From positions 1 through 8,384 of the forward strand of contig JAHLWT010000172.1 in the NCBI GenBank assembly GCA_019057775.1: a stretch of DNA of 8,384 nt, read 5' to 3'. A program made the translations under genes and the position numbers. Of the stretch, positions 779 to 8,262 are shown one piece after another. How positions within the stretch are numbered: position 1 is the stretch's first letter; the number at the start of each line of letters is the position of its first letter. The notes beneath the pieces were generated by a model. That model searched no databases. It worked only from the letters and a program-made list of their open reading frames with translations, and was not told where the DNA came from. The stretch comes from Promethearchaeota archaeon. GTDB lineage: Archaea > Asgardarchaeota > Lokiarchaeia > Sigynarchaeales > SOKP01.

Positions 779-2347
779 ATGAAATTTAAAGACGAGGAAA
801 TAGAGAAACTTGACTTGACTAATGTTGATGATATTGTACGATTGATTTCCGAATTTCTCTGTGGAGAAACATATTATAAACCACCATGCGAAGATGATAA
901 AAAATTACTTTCAGATTTACTGAGTAATTTAAAACAGAAAAAATTTAATTTTGAACAATTTAATGAATTTTTGCTTCTTTTGAATCAAGATAGAATAAGT
1001 GTAGATTTTTTTGAATTTCTCTTTGGAAAAGAAACAATTTCATTACATGATTTGAAGGAGGGTATAATAAAATTCAGAGGATTTTCAATGGTATGTTTCG
1101 GTAATTTCAAAACTGCATATAAACAGCTTGCTCACAAAAATAAAACAGATCTTGAGAAAGTTCTAGCACAACTCTGTAGGGAATCCGATAGTATTTTGCA
1201 CAAATTTAAAAAACGACCTTATCCTATGCTTGAAATTGAACCCATCAGCAGGGACGAAACATGGTATATTGGTTATATTTCTCAGAAAAAATACAAAAAA
1301 GAGAAGAAGTATTTGGAGAATTCACTCCTTTCTGACCCAAAAAGGAAAGGAAGATTTCTACTAAGAGCATCACAAAAATATCTAGAAATGGCGGAAATTA
1401 TAAAAAGAGTGGAAAAGAAGGCTTTGAGAAACGCAAATATTTATCTCACATGGGACTATATGGACGTTTATATAGCTACTTCAATGAGGCATAAATGGGA
1501 ATTTCAAGAAGTTTTTGATTTTATAAAAGAGGTATTTGACTATAGTAATATAAAAGACCTTAACCTTCGGTATTTTGATCCCACACAGTCTAAATGTAAA
1601 GATAGAATAGATAAAGGTTTAATTGAGGGTTTAATGTTGAAAAGAGTTCTGTGTTCTATTTATATGGCTCAAGAGAGTGATACTATGGGTAAAGATTCTG
1701 AGCTTGCTTCAACTTTAGCACAAGGAAAGCCTGTCATAGCGTATGTGCCAAAGATCGACATTGATAAATATTCAGAAAAAATTAAAAAATATCCGTTAGA
1801 TTACTTTGAGAAAAGATTGCTGATTCTACAGGCTGAGGGAGTATTCGAGGATGAAAAATGTATTAATGAACTTGAAAGTTACGATCAGGAATTTTTGAAA
1901 AAGATTGAAAGATTTCTGAAAAAATTGGATAATCACCGCTTCCATCACCGTCTTTCTTTATTGGAGGAAGAAGAGGAGAAATTTAAAGTCAAATATACTT
2001 ATTTTCCTGCAATATGTAAAATTCTTGCAATAGCAGAACATCACAATTTTGAAAGACGAGCTGATAATTTGAGAGAAAATCATCCATTGGCTATTCAGGT
2101 AGATTTGCAATTTGGCGTTGCAAATGGGGTTTTGGTAGTAAGGCACGTTAAAGAGTGTGCTAATTTACTTAAGAGGATATTGACTAATAGTATGGAATTT
2201 ACCATAAAACATATCGGGAAGAGAGGTAAGGGTATCACTATACTTGAAGAAATAATTTCCAAATCTCCCTTCCGAGTTGTGACTGATGATGAAAAATTAA
2301 CTAATTCTTTTTGGAATTTTTATTTAAATCACAGATTAAATAATTAA
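779..2347 (+). CDS. TIR/nucleoside-deoxyribosyltransferase-like domain protein, defence candidate
   Basis: This is a 522-residue soluble protein without a signal peptide or membrane segment. Residues 1-215 are mostly helical and charged, with a conserved-looking block RGFSMVCFGNFKTAYKQL (100-117). Residues about 219-325 form an alpha/beta nucleotide-binding core: strand with MDVYIATSMR (228-237), then YFDPTQSKCKDRIDKG (265-280), then SDTMGKDSELASTLAQGKPVIAY (300-322, split by the pocket). E308 before the LAQGKPVIAY strand sits where deoxyribosyltransferase-like and TIR-like folds keep their catalytic or ribose-binding glutamate. A C-terminal block HPLAIQVDLQFGVANG (435-450) followed by VLVVR looks like a separate conserved part. 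From these family features I infer NAD or nucleotide-derivative cleavage; substrate and trigger are unknown. The AGAAGGGGGA site at 761-770 supports this ATG. The next gene follows after 25 bases and is probably cotranscribed. Confidence 0.7.
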   Translation: MKFKDEEIEKLDLTNVDDIVRLISEFLCGETYYKPPCEDDKKLLSDLLSNLKQKKFNFEQFNEFLLLLNQDRISVDFFEFLFGKETISLHDLKEGIIKFRGFSMVCFGNFKTAYKQLAHKNKTDLEKVLAQLCRESDSILHKFKKRPYPMLEIEPISRDETWYIGYISQKKYKKEKKYLENSLLSDPKRKGRFLLRASQKYLEMAEIIKRVEKKALRNANIYLTWDYMDVYIATSMRHKWEFQEVFDFIKEVFDYSNIKDLNLRYFDPTQSKCKDRIDKGLIEGLMLKRVLCSIYMAQESDTMGKDSELASTLAQGKPVIAYVPKIDIDKYSEKIKKYPLDYFEKRLLILQAEGVFEDEKCINELESYDQEFLKKIERFLKKLDNHRFHHRLSLLEEEEEKFKVKYTYFPAICKILAIAEHHNFERRADNLRENHPLAIQVDLQFGVANGVLVVRHVKECANLLKRILTNSMEFTIKHIGKRGKGITILEEIISKSPFRVVTDDEKLTNSFWNFYLNHRLNN

Positions 2348-2971: not shown

Positions 2972-3754
2972 ATGACACAATTAATCGGGGTATTATGTGA
3001 AAACAAAAAAAAGGTAATCATGCTTTCAGATAGAATGGTTTCTACGGGTAACGGAACTTTAGCCTTTGAACATGAAAGCAAATCAGACATTATTTCACCT
3101 CATGCAATGATTCTTACTGCTGGAACTATTCATGAAACAGAATTAATAGACGATACTAAAGAAGAAGTGAAAGAAACAACCCCCATAAGAAAAATAGCAG
3201 AAAATTTAGCAGAAAATTATAGGAAAATTAGAAAAAAAAGAATTGAACAAGAGATATTAGAAAAGGTTGGTTTGTCTTCATTTCAAGAATTTCATGAAAA
3301 ACATAACTTATTACATTCAGGTTTTGTTGCAGACCTAACTGAAAAAATTCAAAATTATAATTTGGAAGTATCTTTTTTATTAGGTGGTGTCGATGAGGAT
3401 TCTCATCTTTATAGAATTTGTGAACCAGGAAGATGCGTCGTTTTCGATGCATTAGGATTCTGTGGTATTGGAGTTGGAGACAGACATAGCGACCCAGTAT
3501 TTGCATTTTATAGGTTTTCTCCGAATTTGCCTGAAGAAGAAGCTTTGAGAATTACATTTGAAGCAAAAAAGAGAGCCGAAATGGCTGGAGGCGTAGGGCG
3601 GGAAACAGATGCATGGATTATAGATAAAGAGGGAATTTATAAAGTTGATAATGAAACGATAATACATTTGGAGGAATTACATGAAAAACAAGAAGATATC
3701 TCAAAATTCCTTAAAACAGCTAAAATTAAAAGAAGGAAAATTAAAATATCGTGA
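2972..3754 (+). CDS. Proteasome beta/HslV-like Ntn hydrolase, orphan
   Basis: This 260-residue protein begins MTQLIGVLC. Met removal would expose Thr2 as an N-terminal nucleophile. The first 52 residues follow the proteasome beta/HslV pattern: beta strand from Thr2, then IMLSD with D20 where HslV has Asp17, then ESKSDI with K37 where HslV has Lys33, then MILTAG (46-51) before the glycine turn. A second half has FLLGGVDEDSHLYRI (135-149) and a glycine turn GIGVGD (165-170), like the DG...G and GSG regions of the family. At 260 residues it is longer than HslV (about 175), with a charged helical insert near 60-130. Peptidase activity is inferred. No ATPase partner (HslU, ClpX, Mpa) or alpha subunit is encoded nearby, so it may self-assemble like Anbu-type proteins or act on small substrates. 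The upstream AGAGAGGGA (2958-2966) is a moderate ribosome site. Fold confidence is good; function is open. Confidence 0.65.
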   Translation: MTQLIGVLCENKKKVIMLSDRMVSTGNGTLAFEHESKSDIISPHAMILTAGTIHETELIDDTKEEVKETTPIRKIAENLAENYRKIRKKRIEQEILEKVGLSSFQEFHEKHNLLHSGFVADLTEKIQNYNLEVSFLLGGVDEDSHLYRICEPGRCVVFDALGFCGIGVGDRHSDPVFAFYRFSPNLPEEEALRITFEAKKRAEMAGGVGRETDAWIIDKEGIYKVDNETIIHLEELHEKQEDISKFLKTAKIKRRKIKIS

Positions 3755-3899: not shown

Positions 3900-4107
3900 A
3901 ATTTCCATTTCCTCTTTGATTATACCTAAAGGCAAATTCATCAATATATTTTTGCAAATGTTTTTTTGATACCCAAATATGGGTACCAGAAATGCTATTC
4001 TTTAGCCTTGACCAAAAACCTTCGATAGATTGAATATGGTAATCACCCCTTACGTATTCCTTAACGGCGTGTTTGACATAATCATGGAAATAGCCTTCTT
4101 TTTTAAG
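3844..4107 (-). pseudogene. 3' fragment of an ISXO2/IS1595-type transposase
   Basis: The minus-strand frame from 4107 to the TAA at 3844-3846 gives 87 residues with the pattern of the C-terminal third of ISXO2-like transposases: GYFHDYVKHAVKEYVRGDYH, then IQSIEGFWSRLKNSISGTH, then VSKKHLQKYIDEFAFRYN. The IEGFW glutamate is the position of the last catalytic acidic residue in this superfamily. The zinc-ribbon N-terminus and the first two catalytic residues are absent, and the frame runs into unrelated sequence at about 4108, where a REP-transposase element begins. This is an inactive remnant. Confidence 0.75.
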
Positions 4108-4114
4108 GTTGAAA

Positions 4115-4340
4115 GGAATTAGAGGGTCAGGTATTGCAATATAACAAAGGATAGCTATATTGGCAACATGACCAGACCATTACGGATAGAATTTAAAGGT
4201 GCAGTTTATCACATCACCTCCAGAGGAAATGCCAGGCAGGCGTTCTTCCTTGATGAGAAAGACTTTACTGATTTCCTTGGCGTCTTATGTTTGAAAGTGA
4301 TATTGAAAGACCTGACCCCATAATCCTCCCCTCTAATTCC
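4115..4340 (+). mobile_element. Internally deleted REP-transposase element with inverted ends
   Basis: The left end at 4115-4142 begins GGAATTAGAGGGTCAGGT and continues ATTGCAATAT. The right end, read on the minus strand from 4340 to 4300, begins GGAATTAGAGGG, has 13 extra bases, then TCAGGTCTTTCAATAT. The two ends are therefore inverted copies that differ by one small indel. Between them lies only the 5' part of a tyrosine (Y1) transposase gene. This looks like a non-autonomous, deletion-derived unit of about 225 bp that landed next to or inside the ISXO2 remnant. Confidence 0.6.
4168..4323 (+). pseudogene. Truncated REP-associated tyrosine transposase (RAYT, Y1_Tnp)
   Basis: The frame encodes 51 residues. 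The first 41 or so, MTRPLRIEFKGAVYHITSRG then NARQAFFLDEKDFTDFLGVL, are the typical N-terminus of REP-associated (IS200-like, Y1_Tnp) transposases. The frame then runs into the right end repeat of the element and stops at 4321-4323. Complete members are several times longer and carry an HUH pair and a catalytic tyrosine; both are missing here. No good ribosome site precedes the ATG. This is an inactive fragment left by an internal deletion. Confidence 0.8.
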
Positions 4341-4362
4341 ATCCATTAATTTTTAACTAATT

Positions 4363-4548
4363 TCAAGAGAAAAAATAAATCAAAATGAGTGGAATAAATA
4401 GACACATGTTAATGCTCAGTAATCCGGTAACTTTTTCTAAATTTTCATAAGGGGTTAGAGGTTGTGGCACCGTTAGCGTGAGAAGAAAAAGGTAAAGAGG
4501 GAAAATACTTAATAATACTAACTTGAAGGATTTATTTAAAAGAATCAA
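4363..4548 (-). CDS. Possible small membrane protein (61 aa), weak
   Basis: A minus-strand frame with a TTG start gives 61 residues with two hydrophobic stretches, VLLSIFPLYLFLLTLTV (residues 11-27) and MCLFIPLILIYFF (48-60), joined by a polar turn. It follows the E1-like gene by about 60 bases on the same strand. No ribosome site is seen before the TTG and no ATG is available. AT-rich DNA readily yields such hydrophobic frames by chance, so I rate it low. If real, it would be the fourth gene of the ubiquitin-like operon. Confidence 0.2.
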   Translation of the reverse strand: MILLNKSFKLVLLSIFPLYLFLLTLTVPQPLTPYENLEKVTGLLSINMCLFIPLILIYFFS

Positions 4549-4558
4549 ATATAATTTG

Positions 4559-4582
4559 TCGATAATAAAGATTTGACCCTCA
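4559..4582 (-). repeat. Third copy of the RAYT-type end repeat
   Basis: Read on the minus strand, 4582-4559 is TGAGGGTCAAATCTTTATTA then TCGA. This resembles the element ends at 4115 and 4340 (GGGTCAGGT, then TT, then AATAT/ATTAT). It lies 27 bases beyond the stop codon of the E1-like gene. It suggests a second element end nearby, or the remnant of a larger element that spanned 4115-4582. Confidence 0.4.
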
Positions 4583-4608
4583 GATACGCTCTATCTTACC
4601 AAACTTTG

Positions 4609-5949
4609 TTAGGTAAATTTTCCACAGTTACAGGCACAGTCTGGAGATTTCCCAAGCTGGCGAACTTGATAGTGAGAAATACTTAAGGCATCTATATTGA
4701 GGACGTTATCCAAACAAAAATCTTTGAAATTCTCTACCCTTTCTTTTATAATTTCCGCGGCAAGGAGTACCCCACTAAATGCTGAGATAAAAGAAACTGT
4801 AGGTATAAATTGGGAGGATTCTATAGTTTTGGGATAAAGACAACCGAGACATGCTTTTTCCGAAATATTATCATGCCTTGAAATTTGAATCTTTGACACT
4901 TCAGTACCTCCGCAAAGAAGAACTTTTGGCAAATCTTTCTGGATTTCCCAGCGACTTTCGTTATTATCTACACCAACCACAGTTAAATCCATTCCAAACG
5001 CCTTTCTAGGATTTTTTAACTCTTGATATTTTACAGAGAAAGCAGATTTTACACCCAAATAATTATCTGCAAACTTCCTTGCTACCTCTATCTTAGATTT
5101 TTGAAGAATGGCATCTTCTGCCATAGTAAGAAGATAGCGATTAAGGTTTGATATTTCAAGCTTTTGGGGTTCTACTAATATAAGATTTCCTTTGAGTCCA
5201 GGAATAGCACATAATGTGTATAAAGTACCTGAATTTATAGCCCCAAGACTTATCAAATCTAGTGTATCTATAAAAATAGAAGTAGGTAATCGAGGATTTA
5301 TCATAGGGTTATTTTTAAAACCATAATCAAAAGTGGAAAAGACGATAGAGCCTTCTGCAATTGTGTTGTATGGATTGCTCTCCTTAAATGTACTAAACAT
5401 AGCTTTGAAAGCTTCTGCCGCACCAATACATGCTGCTGTCTGGGCTCCGATAGGATTAGGATTATTGCTTACCCAGTCAAGAGGATTCCCTTGAGTATTA
5501 ACATAAGCAATCCATCCATCGGAATTAATAAAAATTGTTCTACCTAAATCTGTTTCGCAAGAGCCAATAGCGATGACTATATCATATCTTTTTTGTTTAT
5601 TTCCCTTTTCCAGGCTCAGGCAAGGATTTATTTTTTTACAGAGACTTTCTAAGCAAGCTGACAGATAGTCTTTTTTAGCAAAAGGGAACTTTATAGTAGT
5701 TTTAGTGTCAGACGGAAGGACAAGATCAATTGATAGGCAAAATCGTGATAGTAAATTTGCAATCATAAAAAGCATATGTTGACCATTAAATGTTTGGAGT
5801 ATTTCCTTAGGTCCGGTGATAGCTACCTCTATAGATTTAAGTCTCGTAAAATATTCTAAGTCCTTTCCTGAACCTACAGAATATTTTGAAAATAAAAGAG
5901 TTCTACTGTAGAACTCTTCAACAAAGTTATCGGGTAACTTAATATTCAT
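4609..5949 (-). CDS. E1-like ubiquitin/ThiF-family activating enzyme, two Rossmann halves
   Basis: This 446-residue protein is inferred to adenylate the C-terminal glycine of the ubiquitin-like protein and may then pass it on as a thioester. Residues about 230-400 form an active ThiF/MoeB-type domain: glycine loop LGAINSG (235-241), SNLNRY with arginine finger R271, K286 and D328 in VVGVDNN. These match the ATP-handling residues of MoeB. A CLGC pair (367-370) and CACNC (438-442) look like a zinc site at the C-terminus. Residues about 38-190 look like a second, degenerate Rossmann domain (IEVAITG, SIDLVLP, YDIVIAIGS, then NPIGAQTAACIGAAEAFKA) without those residues. The transfer cysteine is not assignable; C346 is a candidate. 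AGGAGG at 5957-5962 supports the start. The ATG overlaps the JAMM gene by 11 bases. No E2-like motif is visible. Confidence 0.8.
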   Translation of the reverse strand: MNIKLPDNFVEEFYSRTLLFSKYSVGSGKDLEYFTRLKSIEVAITGPKEILQTFNGQHMLFMIANLLSRFCLSIDLVLPSDTKTTIKFPFAKKDYLSACLESLCKKINPCLSLEKGNKQKRYDIVIAIGSCETDLGRTIFINSDGWIAYVNTQGNPLDWVSNNPNPIGAQTAACIGAAEAFKAMFSTFKESNPYNTIAEGSIVFSTFDYGFKNNPMINPRLPTSIFIDTLDLISLGAINSGTLYTLCAIPGLKGNLILVEPQKLEISNLNRYLLTMAEDAILQKSKIEVARKFADNYLGVKSAFSVKYQELKNPRKAFGMDLTVVGVDNNESRWEIQKDLPKVLLCGGTEVSKIQISRHDNISEKACLGCLYPKTIESSQFIPTVSFISAFSGVLLAAEIIKERVENFKDFCLDNVLNIDALSISHYQVRQLGKSPDCACNCGKFT

Positions 5950-6463
5950 TAGACGTCCTCCTTTTAATGATAATAAATCTTTCTTTTATTTCATTAAATT
6001 TAAGCTCTTTCCACTTTCCAAGGCCAATATGTTCCCATGTACTACACTGTAAGAGATTCCTTAATCCACCTTTACAGAAGTCTGGTACAACTATAGAAAA
6101 AAGACCTATAATGAAGGTAACAGGAAAATTATCATCTGTGTGAGAATGAAAAGCACCACCAGGATGAGTGTGCACTTGAGAGATAATAACCTCTTTCCTC
6201 TGCTCAAGAAGAATATTTATTCTTTGTGATTCATATAGAGGAACATCAAAGCTTATTGGTGTGGAGTATTGTTGTGGATGTATACAATTTTTTATTATAG
6301 CTGTATGTTTCTCAAGTCTTATTCCAGACCACAATACCATTCCTTCGTGCCTTCGTAATCCATGTTTCCGAAGGTATTCTTCCGTCTCACGAAGAATATA
6401 TTGTGGAATAAACACCTTATTTAGCTTAAACTTTCTATATAGATTTTGATTATTTTTTTTCAT
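5939..6463 (-). CDS. JAMM/JAB (Mov34-MPN) zinc isopeptidase-like protein
   Basis: This 174-residue protein is a single JAB domain. It has the JAMM glutamate E40 in RRHEGMVLW, then HTHPGGAFHS with H98 and H100, S107 and D110 (D111 adjacent). The spacing is H-x-H-x6-S-x2-D, one residue shorter than the textbook x7. SIVVPDFCKGG (123-133) is a strand seen in prokaryotic JAB proteins. The inferred role is to cut the ubiquitin-like protein from targets, since the Gly-Gly end of the tag is already exposed and needs no maturation. No signal peptide is present, so it should act in the cytoplasm. It starts 58 bases after the ubiquitin-like gene with AAGAGG (6471-6476) as ribosome site and overlaps the E1-like gene, so it belongs to the same operon. 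RadC-type DNA repair proteins also use this fold, but the neighbours favour a deconjugase. Confidence 0.82.
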   Translation of the reverse strand: MKKNNQNLYRKFKLNKVFIPQYILRETEEYLRKHGLRRHEGMVLWSGIRLEKHTAIIKNCIHPQQYSTPISFDVPLYESQRINILLEQRKEVIISQVHTHPGGAFHSHTDDNFPVTFIIGLFSIVVPDFCKGGLRNLLQCSTWEHIGLGKWKELKFNEIKERFIIIKRRTSNEY

Positions 6464-6478
6464 AAAAAAACCTCTTGG

Positions 6479-6511
6479 AAAAACGTGGGGCGGGCTCTAA
6501 CAGCCCACCCC
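6479..6511 (-). terminator. Terminator or attenuator between ubiquitin-like and JAMM genes
   Basis: In the minus-strand transcript, GGGGUGGGCU (6511-6502) pairs with AGCCCGCCCC (6496-6487) around a 5-nt loop. All 10 pairs form if one G-U pair is allowed. On the opposite strand that pair becomes a C-A mismatch, which shows the structure is meant for this direction. Five T residues (6483-6479) follow after three bases. The stem begins 10 bases after the ubiquitin-like stop codon. Partial termination here would give much ubiquitin-like protein and less protease and E1. Confidence 0.7.
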
Positions 6512-6521
6512 CTTCATAAAC

Positions 6522-6824
6522 TCATCCACCCCGATGCTGGAACAGTAGGTCCAGTACAGCCTTATCAGGAATCTCATAGTCCTTTAAAGATTTTCCGAGA
6601 TCGGTTAGGTCTAGGGTCCCATATCGGAGATAAGGCAAGTCATTTGCGGGTGGTTGGAGTCCGTATCTTTCCTTAAACTCCCTAAGAGTTTCATCCAACA
6701 CCTTTTTTATCTTTTGATGAATGTTAAACTCTAACCCTACAGATTGTCCGCCGTGCCTTACTGTAAGGGAAATTCTATTTTTCTCCTTACCGGGGTAGTT
6801 TTTCTCTACATCTTCTTTTGGCAT
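6522..6824 (-). CDS. Ubiquitin-like beta-grasp modifier ending in Gly-Gly
   Basis: This 100-residue protein has a charged N-terminal extension (1-16) and then a beta-grasp order: strand RISLTVRHGG (17-26), strand QSVGLEFNI (27-35), helix KIKKVLDETLREFKERYG (38-55), and late strands around LRYGTLDL (66-73), then LGKSLKDYEIPDKAVLDLLF (76-95). The LxDY-x-IxD-x-AxLxL ending resembles ubiquitin. The chain ends HRGG directly before the stop, so a mature conjugation tail is encoded. The E1-like and JAMM genes follow in the same operon, which supports a protein-tagging role. A sulfur-carrier role (ThiS/MoaD type) is the alternative. The start is fixed by a nearly perfect anti-SD match GGGAGGTGA (6839-6831). 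A consensus promoter lies upstream under three operator-like palindromes. Confidence 0.85.
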   Translation of the reverse strand: MPKEDVEKNYPGKEKNRISLTVRHGGQSVGLEFNIHQKIKKVLDETLREFKERYGLQPPANDLPYLRYGTLDLTDLGKSLKDYEIPDKAVLDLLFQHRGG

Positions 6825-6868
6825 TACTAATCACCTCCCTTTTCTGAGTTTTTATTATTAACATTAAC

Positions 6869-6897
6869 ATAATAACATGTTCTGCTTGGATTGTCAA
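6869..6897 (-). promoter_or_regulatory. Promoter of the ubiquitin-like operon
   Basis: On the minus strand, consensus TTGACA (6897-6892) and TATTAT (6874-6869) are exactly 17 bp apart. A start near 6862 gives a leader of about 38 nt before the ATG at 6824. The -35 box lies within the right half of the palindrome at 6883-6900, so a bound protein would block it. Confidence 0.75.
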
Positions 6898-6945
6898 GCA
6901 AGATATGCTCTTGCAAGCAAATATTTTGCTTGATTTTCAAAGCAA
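6883..6945. promoter_or_regulatory. Three operator-like palindromes between divergent promoters
   Basis: O1 is TGCTTGGATTGTCAAGCA (6883-6900), O2 is TGCTCTTGCAAGCA (6906-6919), O3 is TTGCTTGATTTTCAAAGCAA (6926-6945). All share TGCT/AGCA half-sites. Centres are 21 and 23 bp apart, about two helical turns, so three dimers could sit on one face of the DNA. O1 covers the -35 of the ubiquitin-like operon and O3 the -35 of the regulator gene. The likely ligand is the XRE protein encoded next door, which would then repress both directions. Confidence 0.7.
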
Positions 6946-6958
6946 CACTGTATATAAT
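6930..6958 (+). promoter_or_regulatory. Promoter of the XRE regulator gene
   Basis: TTGATT (6930-6935) and TATAAT (6953-6958) are 17 bp apart. The start would lie near 6965, about 26 bases before the ATG at 6991. The -35 box is inside palindrome O3, consistent with autorepression. Confidence 0.7.
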
Positions 6959-6990
6959 AAATGTGTGAGTTGGGAGAAAGGAGGTATATT

Positions 6991-7341
6991 ATGGGACAAA
7001 AATTGGCAGAGCTGTTAAGAAAGTGCAGAAACACAAAGGGTTTAACCTTAAGAGAAGTAGAGGGTGGAACAGATATATCTAATGGATATTTAAATCAACT
7101 TGAGAAGAACAATGTAAAGTCACCATCGCCACATAAATTATATATATTAGCTAATTTTTACGAGGTCCCTTACGGGGATTTATTAACAGCAGCGGGATAC
7201 ACTATTCCTAAAAAAGAAAGTACGAAGGGAGAAACGGGGGGCATTGCTTTTAGTTTATTGAAGGATAAAAAAATAACACGAGAAGAAGCAGAGGAGTTAG
7301 TTAAATATCTAAGATTTCTTCGCAGCGAAAAAAGGAAATAA
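6991..7341 (+). CDS. XRE-family helix-turn-helix regulator
   Basis: The ATG at 6991 is chosen over the in-frame ATG at 6961. AAAGGAGG (6977-6984) sits 6 bases before 6991, and the -10 box ends at 6958, so 6961 would lie at or before the transcript start. The product has 116 residues. An N-terminal XRE domain (about 1-65) has MGQKLAELLRKCRNTKGLTL, then LREVEGGTDISNGYLNQLEK as the helix-turn-helix, then HKLYILANFYEVPYGDLL. A helical C-terminal part (KKITREEAEELVKYLRFL) may mediate dimerisation or peptidase contact. It is the probable ligand of the three palindromes upstream and would repress both its own gene and the divergent ubiquitin-like operon. The ImmA-type peptidase gene begins 3 bases after its stop, as in repressor/anti-repressor pairs of mobile elements. 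Confidence 0.85.
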   Translation: MGQKLAELLRKCRNTKGLTLREVEGGTDISNGYLNQLEKNNVKSPSPHKLYILANFYEVPYGDLLTAAGYTIPKKESTKGETGGIAFSLLKDKKITREEAEELVKYLRFLRSEKRK

Positions 7342-7344
7342 TAA

Positions 7345-8262
7345 ATGAGAATTTCAACCGAAAGTTCCCTTACAACTGAAAGTACCTCTGAAATAAAAAA
7401 ACAAGTTAAGCTTCTATTAAAAGCTGCTGGCGTGGGCGATAAACTACCTATTCCAAAGGAAGATATTGTTGCTTGTAGTAAGTTAGTAGAAATTGGACAG
7501 TTAGATTTATCTAAATATAAAGAAAATTGGATGGGGAAAGGATTAAATATCTTAAAAAATGCTCTTTCAAAAATCAGAGGACTTATAGATTTTAAACAAA
7601 AAGTAATATATGTGGATCCAAATATTCACCCGGCACAAAAGACATTTGTTACTTACCACGAAGTATCTCACCGCATTTTACCATGGCACGAAGGAATTTA
7701 TAATCCACATGTGGATACTGATTATTCGATAGATCCAAGAGTATCTACTGGGCTTGAAAGCGAAGCTAATCTTGGTGCTTCTCTAATTCAGTTTCAAATT
7801 GATAGATTTACTAAAGAACTAAAAGATTTTCCTCTTGGATTGGGAAGCGCAATTCACTTAGCACAAAGATATGAAACATCTTTACATTCAACCTTCCGGA
7901 AATATGTTGAGGATAATTACAAGTCATGTGCCCTACTAGTACTTGAAGTATTGGTTGATGGGACTTCTGATAATCAAAAGATGCTTCAATTATGGTACTC
8001 TTTGCAATCATACAAATTTACACTAAATTTTGGCAAGATAGATTGGGAAAAACTATATTTCTCTGGTCATCCTATCTATGATACTGTCCTTTCAGATTCT
8101 TTAGAAAATATTAAGACAGGTGAGATAGTTTTAAAAGATTTATTGGGATTTAAGAAAAAATGTAGAATTGAAGCTTTCTATAATACATTTAATTACTTTG
8201 TGTTAATATTTCCCATTCCTCACTTACCTTTAAGGAAGAAAATAATAATCGTAGATAGTTGA
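7345..8262 (+). CDS. ImmA/IrrE-type zinc peptidase
   Basis: This 305-residue protein carries YHEVSH, with zinc ligands H105 and H109 and catalytic E106, followed by RILPWH. A second acidic block ESEANLGASLIQFQ (138-151) supplies the third ligand (E138 or E140). This is the HEXXH...EAN layout of ImmA/IrrE proteins. Residues 1-90 hold the usual helical N-terminus with IPKEDIVA and the strand KVIYVDP before the metal site. About 150 further residues with hydrophobic strands form a C-terminal part, perhaps the sensor. In known pairs such as ImmA/ImmR the peptidase cleaves the partner XRE repressor on a stress signal. Here that would free the ubiquitin-like operon. The ribosome site AAAGGAA (7331-7337) lies in the end of the regulator gene, so the two are coupled. 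Confidence 0.85.
   Translation: MRISTESSLTTESTSEIKKQVKLLLKAAGVGDKLPIPKEDIVACSKLVEIGQLDLSKYKENWMGKGLNILKNALSKIRGLIDFKQKVIYVDPNIHPAQKTFVTYHEVSHRILPWHEGIYNPHVDTDYSIDPRVSTGLESEANLGASLIQFQIDRFTKELKDFPLGLGSAIHLAQRYETSLHSTFRKYVEDNYKSCALLVLEVLVDGTSDNQKMLQLWYSLQSYKFTLNFGKIDWEKLYFSGHPIYDTVLSDSLENIKTGEIVLKDLLGFKKKCRIEAFYNTFNYFVLIFPIPHLPLRKKIIIVDS

What the first reader, a model, noticed from the sequence alone, without database searches (positions are those of the whole stretch)
4609..6824. Compact ubiquitin-like tagging operon without a visible E2
A modifier ending exactly in Gly-Gly, a JAMM protease and an E1-like enzyme are encoded in one operon. Described bacterial ubiquitin-like defence systems (Bil, and CBASS with Cap2/Cap3) use an E2 protein or E2 domain. 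None is seen here as a separate gene, and the E1 N-terminus reads as a second Rossmann half. Either the E1 transfers the tag directly, an E2 is supplied elsewhere, or the N-terminal half is a diverged transfer domain.
Basis: partly seen in the sequence, partly recalled or inferred. Interest (0 to 1): 0.8.

Follow-up and report, generated by a model that had tools for sequence, protein, structure and literature searches.

The report
Ubiquitin-like tagging operon without thioester enzymes
A three-gene bacterial operon carries a ubiquitin-like tag, its activating enzyme and its remover, but it has neither the usual carrier enzyme nor the activating enzyme's own reactive cysteine, so it may attach its tag by a simpler chemistry than its known relatives.

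Summary

The E1 also lacks BilD's catalytic-cysteine domain: its linker is 15 aa, against 80-103 aa. Of 71 E1s compared, 39 share the short linker and form one clade with the adenylation residues intact; its only conserved cysteines look like a zinc site. Among 17 BilD-type loci read as DNA, the 15 with a linker cysteine have an E2 gene; the two without (this window and a Rhizobium plasmid operon) have none.

I read it as a Bil-related system that activates its tag as an acyl-adenylate and transfers it without E1 or E2 thioesters. Architecture is supported by sequence and model; transfer, substrates and defence are inferred. E2-less Ubl/JAB/E1 operons were predicted in 2006, so this is a new variant of a known kind.

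The parts
6522..6824 (-). Ubiquitin-like modifier, 100 aa, single beta-grasp domain with a low-confidence N-terminus of 13 residues, C-terminus ...RGG with nothing after it; near DUF2604 (the family of the NGR234 modifier)
   Evidence: DUF2604 E 0.0005, 20.9 bits, below the cut-off of 25; 10 of 20 relatives carry precomputed PF10790
5939..6463 (-). JAMM/MPN+ isopeptidase, BilC-like; motif HTHPGGAFHSHTDD and upstream Glu present
4609..5949 (-). BilD-like E1, 446 aa: inactive adenylation domain (about 1-220) plus active adenylation domain (about 221-446); conserved Cys C367, C370, C438 (zinc-site pattern, inferred); catalytic-Cys domain absent
4795..4839 (-). Codons for E1 residues 371-385, the 15-aa linker that stands in place of the 80-103 aa Cys-domain segment of BilD-type E1s
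   Evidence: coordinates computed from the E1 start at 5949
6487..6511 (-). Terminator/attenuator-like hairpin (10 pairs, 8 G-C) with a T-run between Ubl and JAMM; could give more Ubl than JAMM/E1
   Evidence: 3 terminator-like sites in 4300-7100, 1.5 expected; dG -23.7 kcal/mol, z -3.56 for 6464-6521
6869..6897 (-). Sigma-70-like promoter for the Ubl operon, TTGACA-17-TATTAT with TG
   Evidence: 11 of 12; number of sites in the region 11 against 9.1 expected, so not significant as a scan
6930..6958 (+). Sigma-70-like promoter for the regulator genes, TTGATT-17-TATAAT
   Evidence: 10 of 12; same caution
6877..6945 (.). Two imperfect 25-nt direct repeats (6877-6901, 6921-6945; 72%) with CTTG/CAAG arms, overlapping both divergent promoter-like sites: candidate repressor operator
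   Evidence: function is inference; a related pattern scan was not significant (1 match, 0.56 expected)
6961..7341 (+). CapH-like HTH regulator (start probably at 6991, behind AAAGGAGG; read by eye)
   Evidence: capH E 6.4e-10
7345..8262 (+). CapP-like ImmA/IrrE metallopeptidase, HEVSH motif
   Evidence: capP E 9.2e-12

Best explanation
It is a Bil-related ubiquitin-like system reduced to modifier, isopeptidase and an adenylation-only E1. Shown by sequence and model: the E1 has the fused inactive and active adenylation halves of BilD, the residues used to adenylate the modifier, no catalytic-cysteine domain, and no E2 gene beside it. Inferred: (1) the E1 adenylates the exposed Gly-Gly end of the modifier, which needs no trimming; (2) the acyl-adenylate is attacked directly by a lysine, on the E1 itself or on a protein docked to the E1, with no E1 or E2 thioester, much as in archaeal SAMPylation; (3) the JAMM protein removes the tag and prevents build-up; (4) CapH/CapP-like regulators keep the operon off until DNA damage or phage infection gives the signal. 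Whether the tag serves antiphage defence or a stress response is open.
Against: No biochemistry. Only two Cys-less loci could be read as DNA; for the other 38 clade members only proteins were available. The host genome is not held, so an E2 in trans is not excluded. PMC5587910 says UbaA is not known to modify target proteins directly, so extra factors are needed; none is visible here. Whether the Cys domain was lost, or never gained in this branch, is not settled: the AU test does not reject all full-Cys-domain rows, or all Cys-bearing rows, as one clade (p 0.255 and 0.286). UBA4/Urm1, described in PMC12355090 as a noncanonical E1 without a Cys half-domain, still uses a catalytic Cys and a rhodanese domain. 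The one genome-contig scan found a single relative, and it is Cys-type with an E2; none of the BilD-type matches in 398 genomes of that archaeal phylum is of the short type, so the clade has not been seen in those genome sets.
Confidence: 0.52

Rival explanations
1. The E1 is adenylation-only, but an E2 or another thiol factor encoded elsewhere in the genome (as MsrA for SAMPs) takes the modifier from the adenylate and conjugates it.
For: Haloferax MsrA, with its active-site C13, directs SAMP onto targets together with UbaA (PMC5587910 passages). The genome is not held.
Against: In 15 of 15 loci with a Cys-bearing E1 the E2 is in the operon, and it is missing in the two where the E1 Cys is missing. 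The JAMM-E1 fusions P0036, P0037, P0039 and P0043 carry no E2 module; their gene neighbours could not be read.
Confidence: 0.2
2. The pair is a sulfur or acyl carrier system: the Ubl is activated, turned into a thiocarboxylate and used for small-molecule or RNA thiolation, with JAMM recycling it.
For: MoeB/MoaD-type E1s need no catalytic-Cys domain; three-gene ThiS/MoaD + E1-rhodanese + JAB operons exist (type 4b, PMC1779556 section 12).
Against: No rhodanese domain on the E1 and no sulfurtransferase or metabolic family among the ten window proteins scanned. The E1 is BilD-like and the Ubl is nearest DUF2604. CapH/CapP-type regulators adjoin it.
Confidence: 0.13
3. The E1 forms an intermediate on a non-cysteine residue (for example an oxyester on Ser or Thr) and hands the Ubl on from there.
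For: S386 (38 of 39) and S389 (39 of 39) are conserved just after the linker. From recall only, not seen in any call, the Bub pathway has been described as using non-thioester intermediates; its paper (PMC12885553) is not held.
Against: S389 is as conserved (26 of 27) and S386 is common (20 of 27) in E1s with the full Cys domain, so both look structural; no Ser or Thr in the linker itself reaches 90% in the clade.
Confidence: 0.1
4. The N-terminal half is a fused E2 domain (Pfam Prok-E2_C), so the operon is an ordinary E1-E2 fusion system like Cap2.
For: PF14459 Prok-E2_C matches residues 97-185, E 2e-7, above its cut-off; annotators call BilD relatives 'E2 ligase fold family C protein'.
Against: The same model matches NGR234 BilD 38-166 at E 1.9e-77, a protein whose operon has a separate E2-like gene; BilD's N-terminal part is an inactive adenylation domain (PMC11354881 passages); the window model superposes on BilD from 10 to 446.
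Confidence: 0.01
5. The operon is a decaying Bil system that has lost E2 and the Cys domain and no longer works.
For: By eye, transposase-like fragments lie just downstream.
Against: Adenylation residues are conserved across 39 short-linker E1s, which form one diverse clade, and the GG end across most of 21 Ubls; the window's JAMM motif is intact.
Confidence: 0.03

Closest known systems
Bil (BilABCD; solved E1 8tyz/8tz0 and DUB 8tyx)
   Same: BilC-like JAMM and BilD-like E1 with inactive + active adenylation halves; DUF2604-like Ubl; same gene order (Ubl, [E2], JAMM, E1) as in NGR234 locus L004
   Different: no BilB E2 gene beside it; E1 lacks the Cys domain with the catalytic Cys (Cys417 in BilD, PMC11354881 passages); one beta-grasp domain, where BilA is described with two, and it ends exactly in GG
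Operon type 6e of Iyer, Burroughs and Aravind 2006 (polyUbl + JAB-E1 + inactive E2/RWD)
   Same: Ubl, JAB and E1 with no catalytically active E2; JAB-E1 fusions occur among our Cys-less relatives too; locus L025 has a Multi_ubiq protein with this E1 type
   Different: the window has a single Ubl domain, JAMM and E1 as separate genes, and no RWD-like gene was seen (RWD was not searched with its own model); section 14 of the 2006 paper does not discuss an E1 Cys domain
Bub (PDB 9ea4 and others, 'Citrobacter BubCD')
   Same: a bacterial ubiquitination-like pathway with CapW or CapH+CapP neighbours in 219 of 544 operons (PMC13373217 passages)
   Different: the sequence match of our E1 profile to BubCD is marginal (E 0.005, 42 profile positions) against 2.2e-48 for BilD; the Bub papers are not held
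Archaeal SAMP/UbaA/HvJAMM1
   Same: Ubl + E1 + JAMM, E2-less isopeptide tagging (PMC5587910 passages)
   Different: different E1 type: UbaA is a MoeB-type enzyme (recalled), while the window E1 has a fused inactive half
Type II CBASS Cap2/Cap3
   Same: E1 with JAB peptidase in defence; CapH/CapP-type regulation
   Different: no CD-NTase in the window; no E2 domain
ThiS/MoaD + E1-rhodanese + JAB operons (type 4b)
   Same: three genes, no E2
   Different: no rhodanese domain here; BilD-type E1

Membership tests
Bil (BilABCD) | BilC-type JAMM protease | tested here: met
   PADLOC BilC 1e-11; 8tyx_B 1.4e-20; motif aligned
Bil (BilABCD) | BilD-type E1 with fused inactive and active adenylation domains | tested here: met
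Bil (BilABCD) | about 80-residue Cys domain with catalytic Cys in the E1 | tested here: not met
   15-aa linker without Cys
Bil (BilABCD) | BilB E2 in the operon | tested here: not met
   no window segment better than E 0.24, against 6 of 6 held-out E2s found; 15 of 15 Cys-type loci have one
Bil (BilABCD) | E2 anywhere in the genome | not testable with these tools
   no genome held
Bil (BilABCD) | BilA modifier (DUF2604 family; two beta-grasp domains in the described BilA) | tested here: inconclusive
   DUF2604 at 20.9 bits, cut-off 25; 10 of 20 relatives carry the precomputed domain; one domain in the window; the NGR234 protein is 98 aa with one DUF2604 match
Bil (BilABCD) | protection against phage | not tested
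   needs an experiment
Type 6e / Bub | multi-domain Ubl (polyUbl) | tested here: not met
   single beta-grasp domain, 100 aa; the 2006 table notes one species with a solo Ubl
Type 6e / Bub | JAB fused to E1 | tested here: not met
   separate overlapping genes; fused only in relatives P0036, P0037, P0039, P0043
Type 6e / Bub | inactive E2/RWD-like protein | tested here: inconclusive
   only a BilB-type E2 model was used, which need not detect RWD-like domains
Archaeal SAMP system | Ubl, E1 and JAMM without E2 | tested here: met
   (operon only; genome not testable)
Archaeal SAMP system | E1 of the UbaA/MoeB type without a fused inactive half | tested here: not met
   that UbaA lacks this half is recalled
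Type 4b sulfur-carrier operon | rhodanese domain or sulfurtransferase | tested here: not met
   no such domain in ten window proteins
Type II CBASS | CD-NTase plus Cap2 with E2 domain | tested here: not met
   no CD-NTase among proteins scanned; N-terminal half is not E2
CapH/CapP regulator pair | HTH repressor plus ImmA/IrrE peptidase beside an immune-type operon | tested here: met
   PADLOC capH 6.4e-10 and capP 9.2e-12; HEVSH in the sequence; the function itself was not tested

The most novel reading that the evidence does not exclude
A whole clade of bacterial ubiquitin-like systems conjugates its tag with no thioester step at all: a full-size E1 of the eukaryote-like architecture (inactive + active adenylation halves) lost its catalytic-cysteine domain together with the E2, or never had it, and passes the modifier from acyl-adenylate straight to lysines under control of a JAMM protease that is sometimes fused to the same enzyme.
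Probability: 0.42. Interest if true: 0.85.

Novelty: new variant of a known kind. Interest (0 to 1): 0.62.

Why it matters
Textbook ubiquitin chemistry runs adenylate, E1 thioester, E2 thioester, isopeptide. Here the two thioester modules appear to be missing together while what is needed for activation and removal is conserved. That gives a natural, small, expressible system for asking whether ubiquitin-like tagging needs thioesters at all. Depending on the root of the E1 family, it is either a simplification of Bil or a surviving intermediate between MoeB-type activators and eukaryote-like E1s. It also warns that Pfam's 'Prok-E2_C' label marks an inactive adenylation domain in BilD-type E1s and can create false E2s.

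Tried and rejected
E2 domain in residues 1-220: rejected. Hidden BilB-type E2 ORF in the window on either strand: none. Conserved alternative cysteine in the E1: only three positions reach 90% in the clade; C346, C174 and C71 are Cys in 24, 32 and 30 of the 35 rows of A2. Proteasome-like ORF 2972-3754 as a partner of the tag system: no supporting evidence; it is convergent with the operon, transposase-like fragments (by eye) lie between, and by eye no contig length is shared between its 120 listed relatives (125 found) and the short-linker E1s. Viral and phage homes: E1 scans of viral contigs and the Ubl scan found no relative; tblastn against phages no match. Loss of the Cys domain proved by phylogeny: not established. 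L030's neighbouring HTH/ImmA genes as a second CapH/CapP case: rejected, they score best as PD-Lambda-2_B. Rfam: nothing at gathering threshold. VIA rows list only E1 families at the top; absence of other folds is not read from them.

Limits of counts. One search examined 22 loci; five (L032-L036) lacked the E1 CxxC and were set aside before the association count: L032-L034 had no E2 match better than E 12, L035 E 0.51, L036 E 8.1e-5. Of 18 plasmid records matching the E1 I read 12. L004, L027, L028, L029 and L031 are near copies. Six of the 15 E2 loci trained the E2 model (each was also found when left out). Two of 66 E1 relatives (P0035, P0040) were too short; four long-branch rows (L003, L011, P0065, P0066) were dropped from the tree, and P0065/P0066. 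P0001 is nearly identical to the window protein. The relatives were found by likeness to the window's E1, so the short group is over-represented.
Full report
What is there. The minus strand carries three genes in the order Ubl (6522-6824), JAMM (5939-6463), E1 (4609-5949). JAMM and E1 overlap by 11 nt, and each of the three starts has a recognisable ribosome-binding site in the raw sequence (by eye). Divergently on the plus strand stand an HTH gene and an ImmA/IrrE peptidase gene that match capH and capP (E 6.4e-10 and 9.2e-12). Two back-to-back promoter-like sites and a pair of 25-nt repeats fill the shared intergenic space, which would suit a repressed defence-type operon; as a scan the promoters are not significant (11 sites, 9.1 expected). 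A strong hairpin followed by T's lies between Ubl and JAMM (6487-6511; the 58-nt spacer folds at -23.7 kcal/mol, z -3.56), so the modifier may be made in excess over the enzymes.

The N-terminal half is not an E2. Pfam's Prok-E2_C matches residues 97-185, which would suggest a hidden E2. The same model matches the NGR234 BilD protein at E 1.9e-77, although that operon has its own E2-like gene and BilD has an inactive adenylation domain at its N-terminus (PMC11354881 passages). The label goes back to a 2006 sequence-based assignment (PMC1779556 section 14).

A second absence. In BilD the active half holds an approximately 80-residue helical Cys domain with the catalytic Cys417 (PMC11354881 passages), in the segment after the CxxC. 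In 71 E1s (window, 64 relatives, 6 locus proteins) the length of this segment falls into three groups: 14-22 aa in 39, 31-38 aa in 5, 80-103 aa in 27. The window has 15 aa and no Cys. In the short group 36 of 39 have no Cys in the segment, and the only cysteines conserved in 90% or more of the group are C367, C370 and C438, a zinc-site pattern (zinc is inferred). The residues of the adenylation site are kept (R16 36 of 36 present, R271, K286 and D328 39 of 39). So the group should activate a Ubl but cannot form the BilD-type thioester.

E2 and cysteine go together. I read the neighbourhoods of 22 loci. Five have no CxxC in the E1 and were set aside. Of the 17 others, all 15 whose linker has a Cys also have a BilB-type E2 gene, including L002, L010, L023, L024 and L030, which have only a 31-38 aa linker with a single Cys. 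The two without Cys, the window and L025, have no E2 match. L025, from plasmid pRlX1 of Rhizobium beringeri TP13, encodes a Multi_ubiq protein ending in RGG, a BilC-like JAMM and a 428-aa BilD-like E1, with at most one base between the genes: a second case, from a named isolate. The exact probability of this split is 0.0074, or 0.013 with near copies collapsed. The pattern was noted; of the 15 loci fetched after that, ten are BilD-type (nine with Cys, and L025) and all ten agree. The E2 model found every held-out E2 (6 of 6) and nothing in the window.

Evolution. Without the linker columns, the 39 short-linker E1s form one clade (100/99); with L025 added the group still holds together (74/99), but L025 sits on a very long branch. 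On the tree rooted with ThiF/MoeB-like proteins from genomes of an archaeal phylum, the clade is nested among Cys-bearing E1s (96/90 for the node that joins it with most full-Cys-domain rows, 84/61 for the nearer one). That suggests loss, but the AU test does not reject a tree with the Cys-bearing rows together (p 0.255 and 0.286). Absence may therefore be derived or ancestral. The clade was not seen in the genome sets I could scan: the genome-contig scan gave one relative, a Cys-type archaeal locus with an E2, and the three BilD-type matches among 398 genomes of its phylum are not short-type.

Mechanism. The best-supported path is activation to Ubl-AMP and direct transfer. The nearest tested analogue is Haloferax SAMPylation, which lacks apparent E2/E3 homologues, shows self-modification of the E1, and is reversed by a JAMM protease, but needs an extra factor (MsrA, with DMSO) for other targets in vitro (PMC5587910 passages). 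By analogy the first conjugates here may be on the E1 or on proteins bound to it. A lysine in the inactive half, K182, is invariant in the short group (39 of 39) but present in only 11 of 27 rows with the full Cys domain (Arg in L025); its role is unknown. Rivals are an E2 or thiol factor in trans, a sulfur-carrier role, and a non-cysteine intermediate.

What is known. A Ubl, JAB and E1 without an active E2 is not itself new: PMC1779556 (sections 12, 14 and 16, and passages of Table 1) lists Ubl/E1-rhodanese/JAB operons (4b) and polyUbl with JAB-E1 fusions and an inactive E2/RWD (6e), and proposed that an E1 could itself transfer the Ubl to lysines, though from an E1 cysteine. What I did not find in print is a BilD-type E1 clade without the Cys domain, coupled to E2 absence; searches were in the held open-licence library (listings). 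The Gong 2025 and Ye 2026 papers on Bub are not held and might mention it.

Verdict. The finding is real and somewhat stronger than stated: the operon lacks both thioester-forming modules of its closest relatives. The architecture is well supported; E2-free conjugation remains a prediction that a simple gel assay could test.

Noticed in passing
2972-3754 (+): A 260-aa proteasome-beta-like protein of a family without its own model in the libraries scanned: in 121 aligned sequences the second residue Thr (118 of 119 with a residue there), D20 (119 of 119) and K37 (121 of 121) match an Ntn-hydrolase Thr/Asp/Lys triad (triad recalled); relatives occur in many metagenome contigs and two records named Chloroflexi.
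   Followed up: partly
779-2347 (+): 522-aa protein with only weak family matches (SH2 E 0.076, PADLOC CARF1--CARF_HEPN E 0.015; none); by eye its middle part resembles a nucleoside-deoxyribosyltransferase/TIR-like fold; possibly another defence effector.
   Followed up: no
3900-4323: By eye, remnants of transposase genes (REP-associated-like ORF 4168-4323 on +, an ISXO2/IS1595-like stretch on - around 3900-4140), suggesting a mobile region; names are recalled, not tested.
   Followed up: no
6487-6511 (-): Terminator-like hairpin inside the operon between Ubl and JAMM, possibly setting the Ubl to enzyme ratio.
   Followed up: partly
window E1 residue K182 (5404-5406, -): Lys in the inactive half that is invariant in the short-linker clade (39 of 39) but Lys in only 11 of 27 E1s with the full Cys domain; unexplained.
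   Followed up: no
L004:3899-5458, window E1 residues 97-185: Pfam PF14459 'Prok-E2_C' marks the inactive adenylation domain of BilD-type E1s, not an E2; plasmid annotation as 'E2 ligase fold family C protein' inherits the error.
   Followed up: yes
L025:1777-4266: Rhizobium beringeri TP13 plasmid operon Multi_ubiq (ends RGG) - JAMM - Cys-less BilD-like E1 without E2, behind a UvrD-helicase gene.
   Followed up: yes
L032:4001-6382, L033:3941-6307, L034:3965-5867: Multi_ubiq + ThiF operons (DUF6527 annotated in L032 and L033) with no JAMM annotated and no E2 match in the stretches read; the Multi_ubiq query matches 143 plasmid records at E 1e-3.
   Followed up: partly
L030:15-1162 (-): Mesorhizobium huakuii Ubl/E2/JAMM/E1 operon lies next to HTH and ImmA/IrrE genes that score as PD-Lambda-2_B: a defence neighbourhood.
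   Followed up: partly
L023, L024, L002, L010, L030: A third E1 type with a 31-38 aa linker and a single Cys but no helical Cys domain, with an E2 in the operon; reminiscent of crossover-loop-Cys E1s such as UBA5 (PMC12355090 passages).
   Followed up: partly
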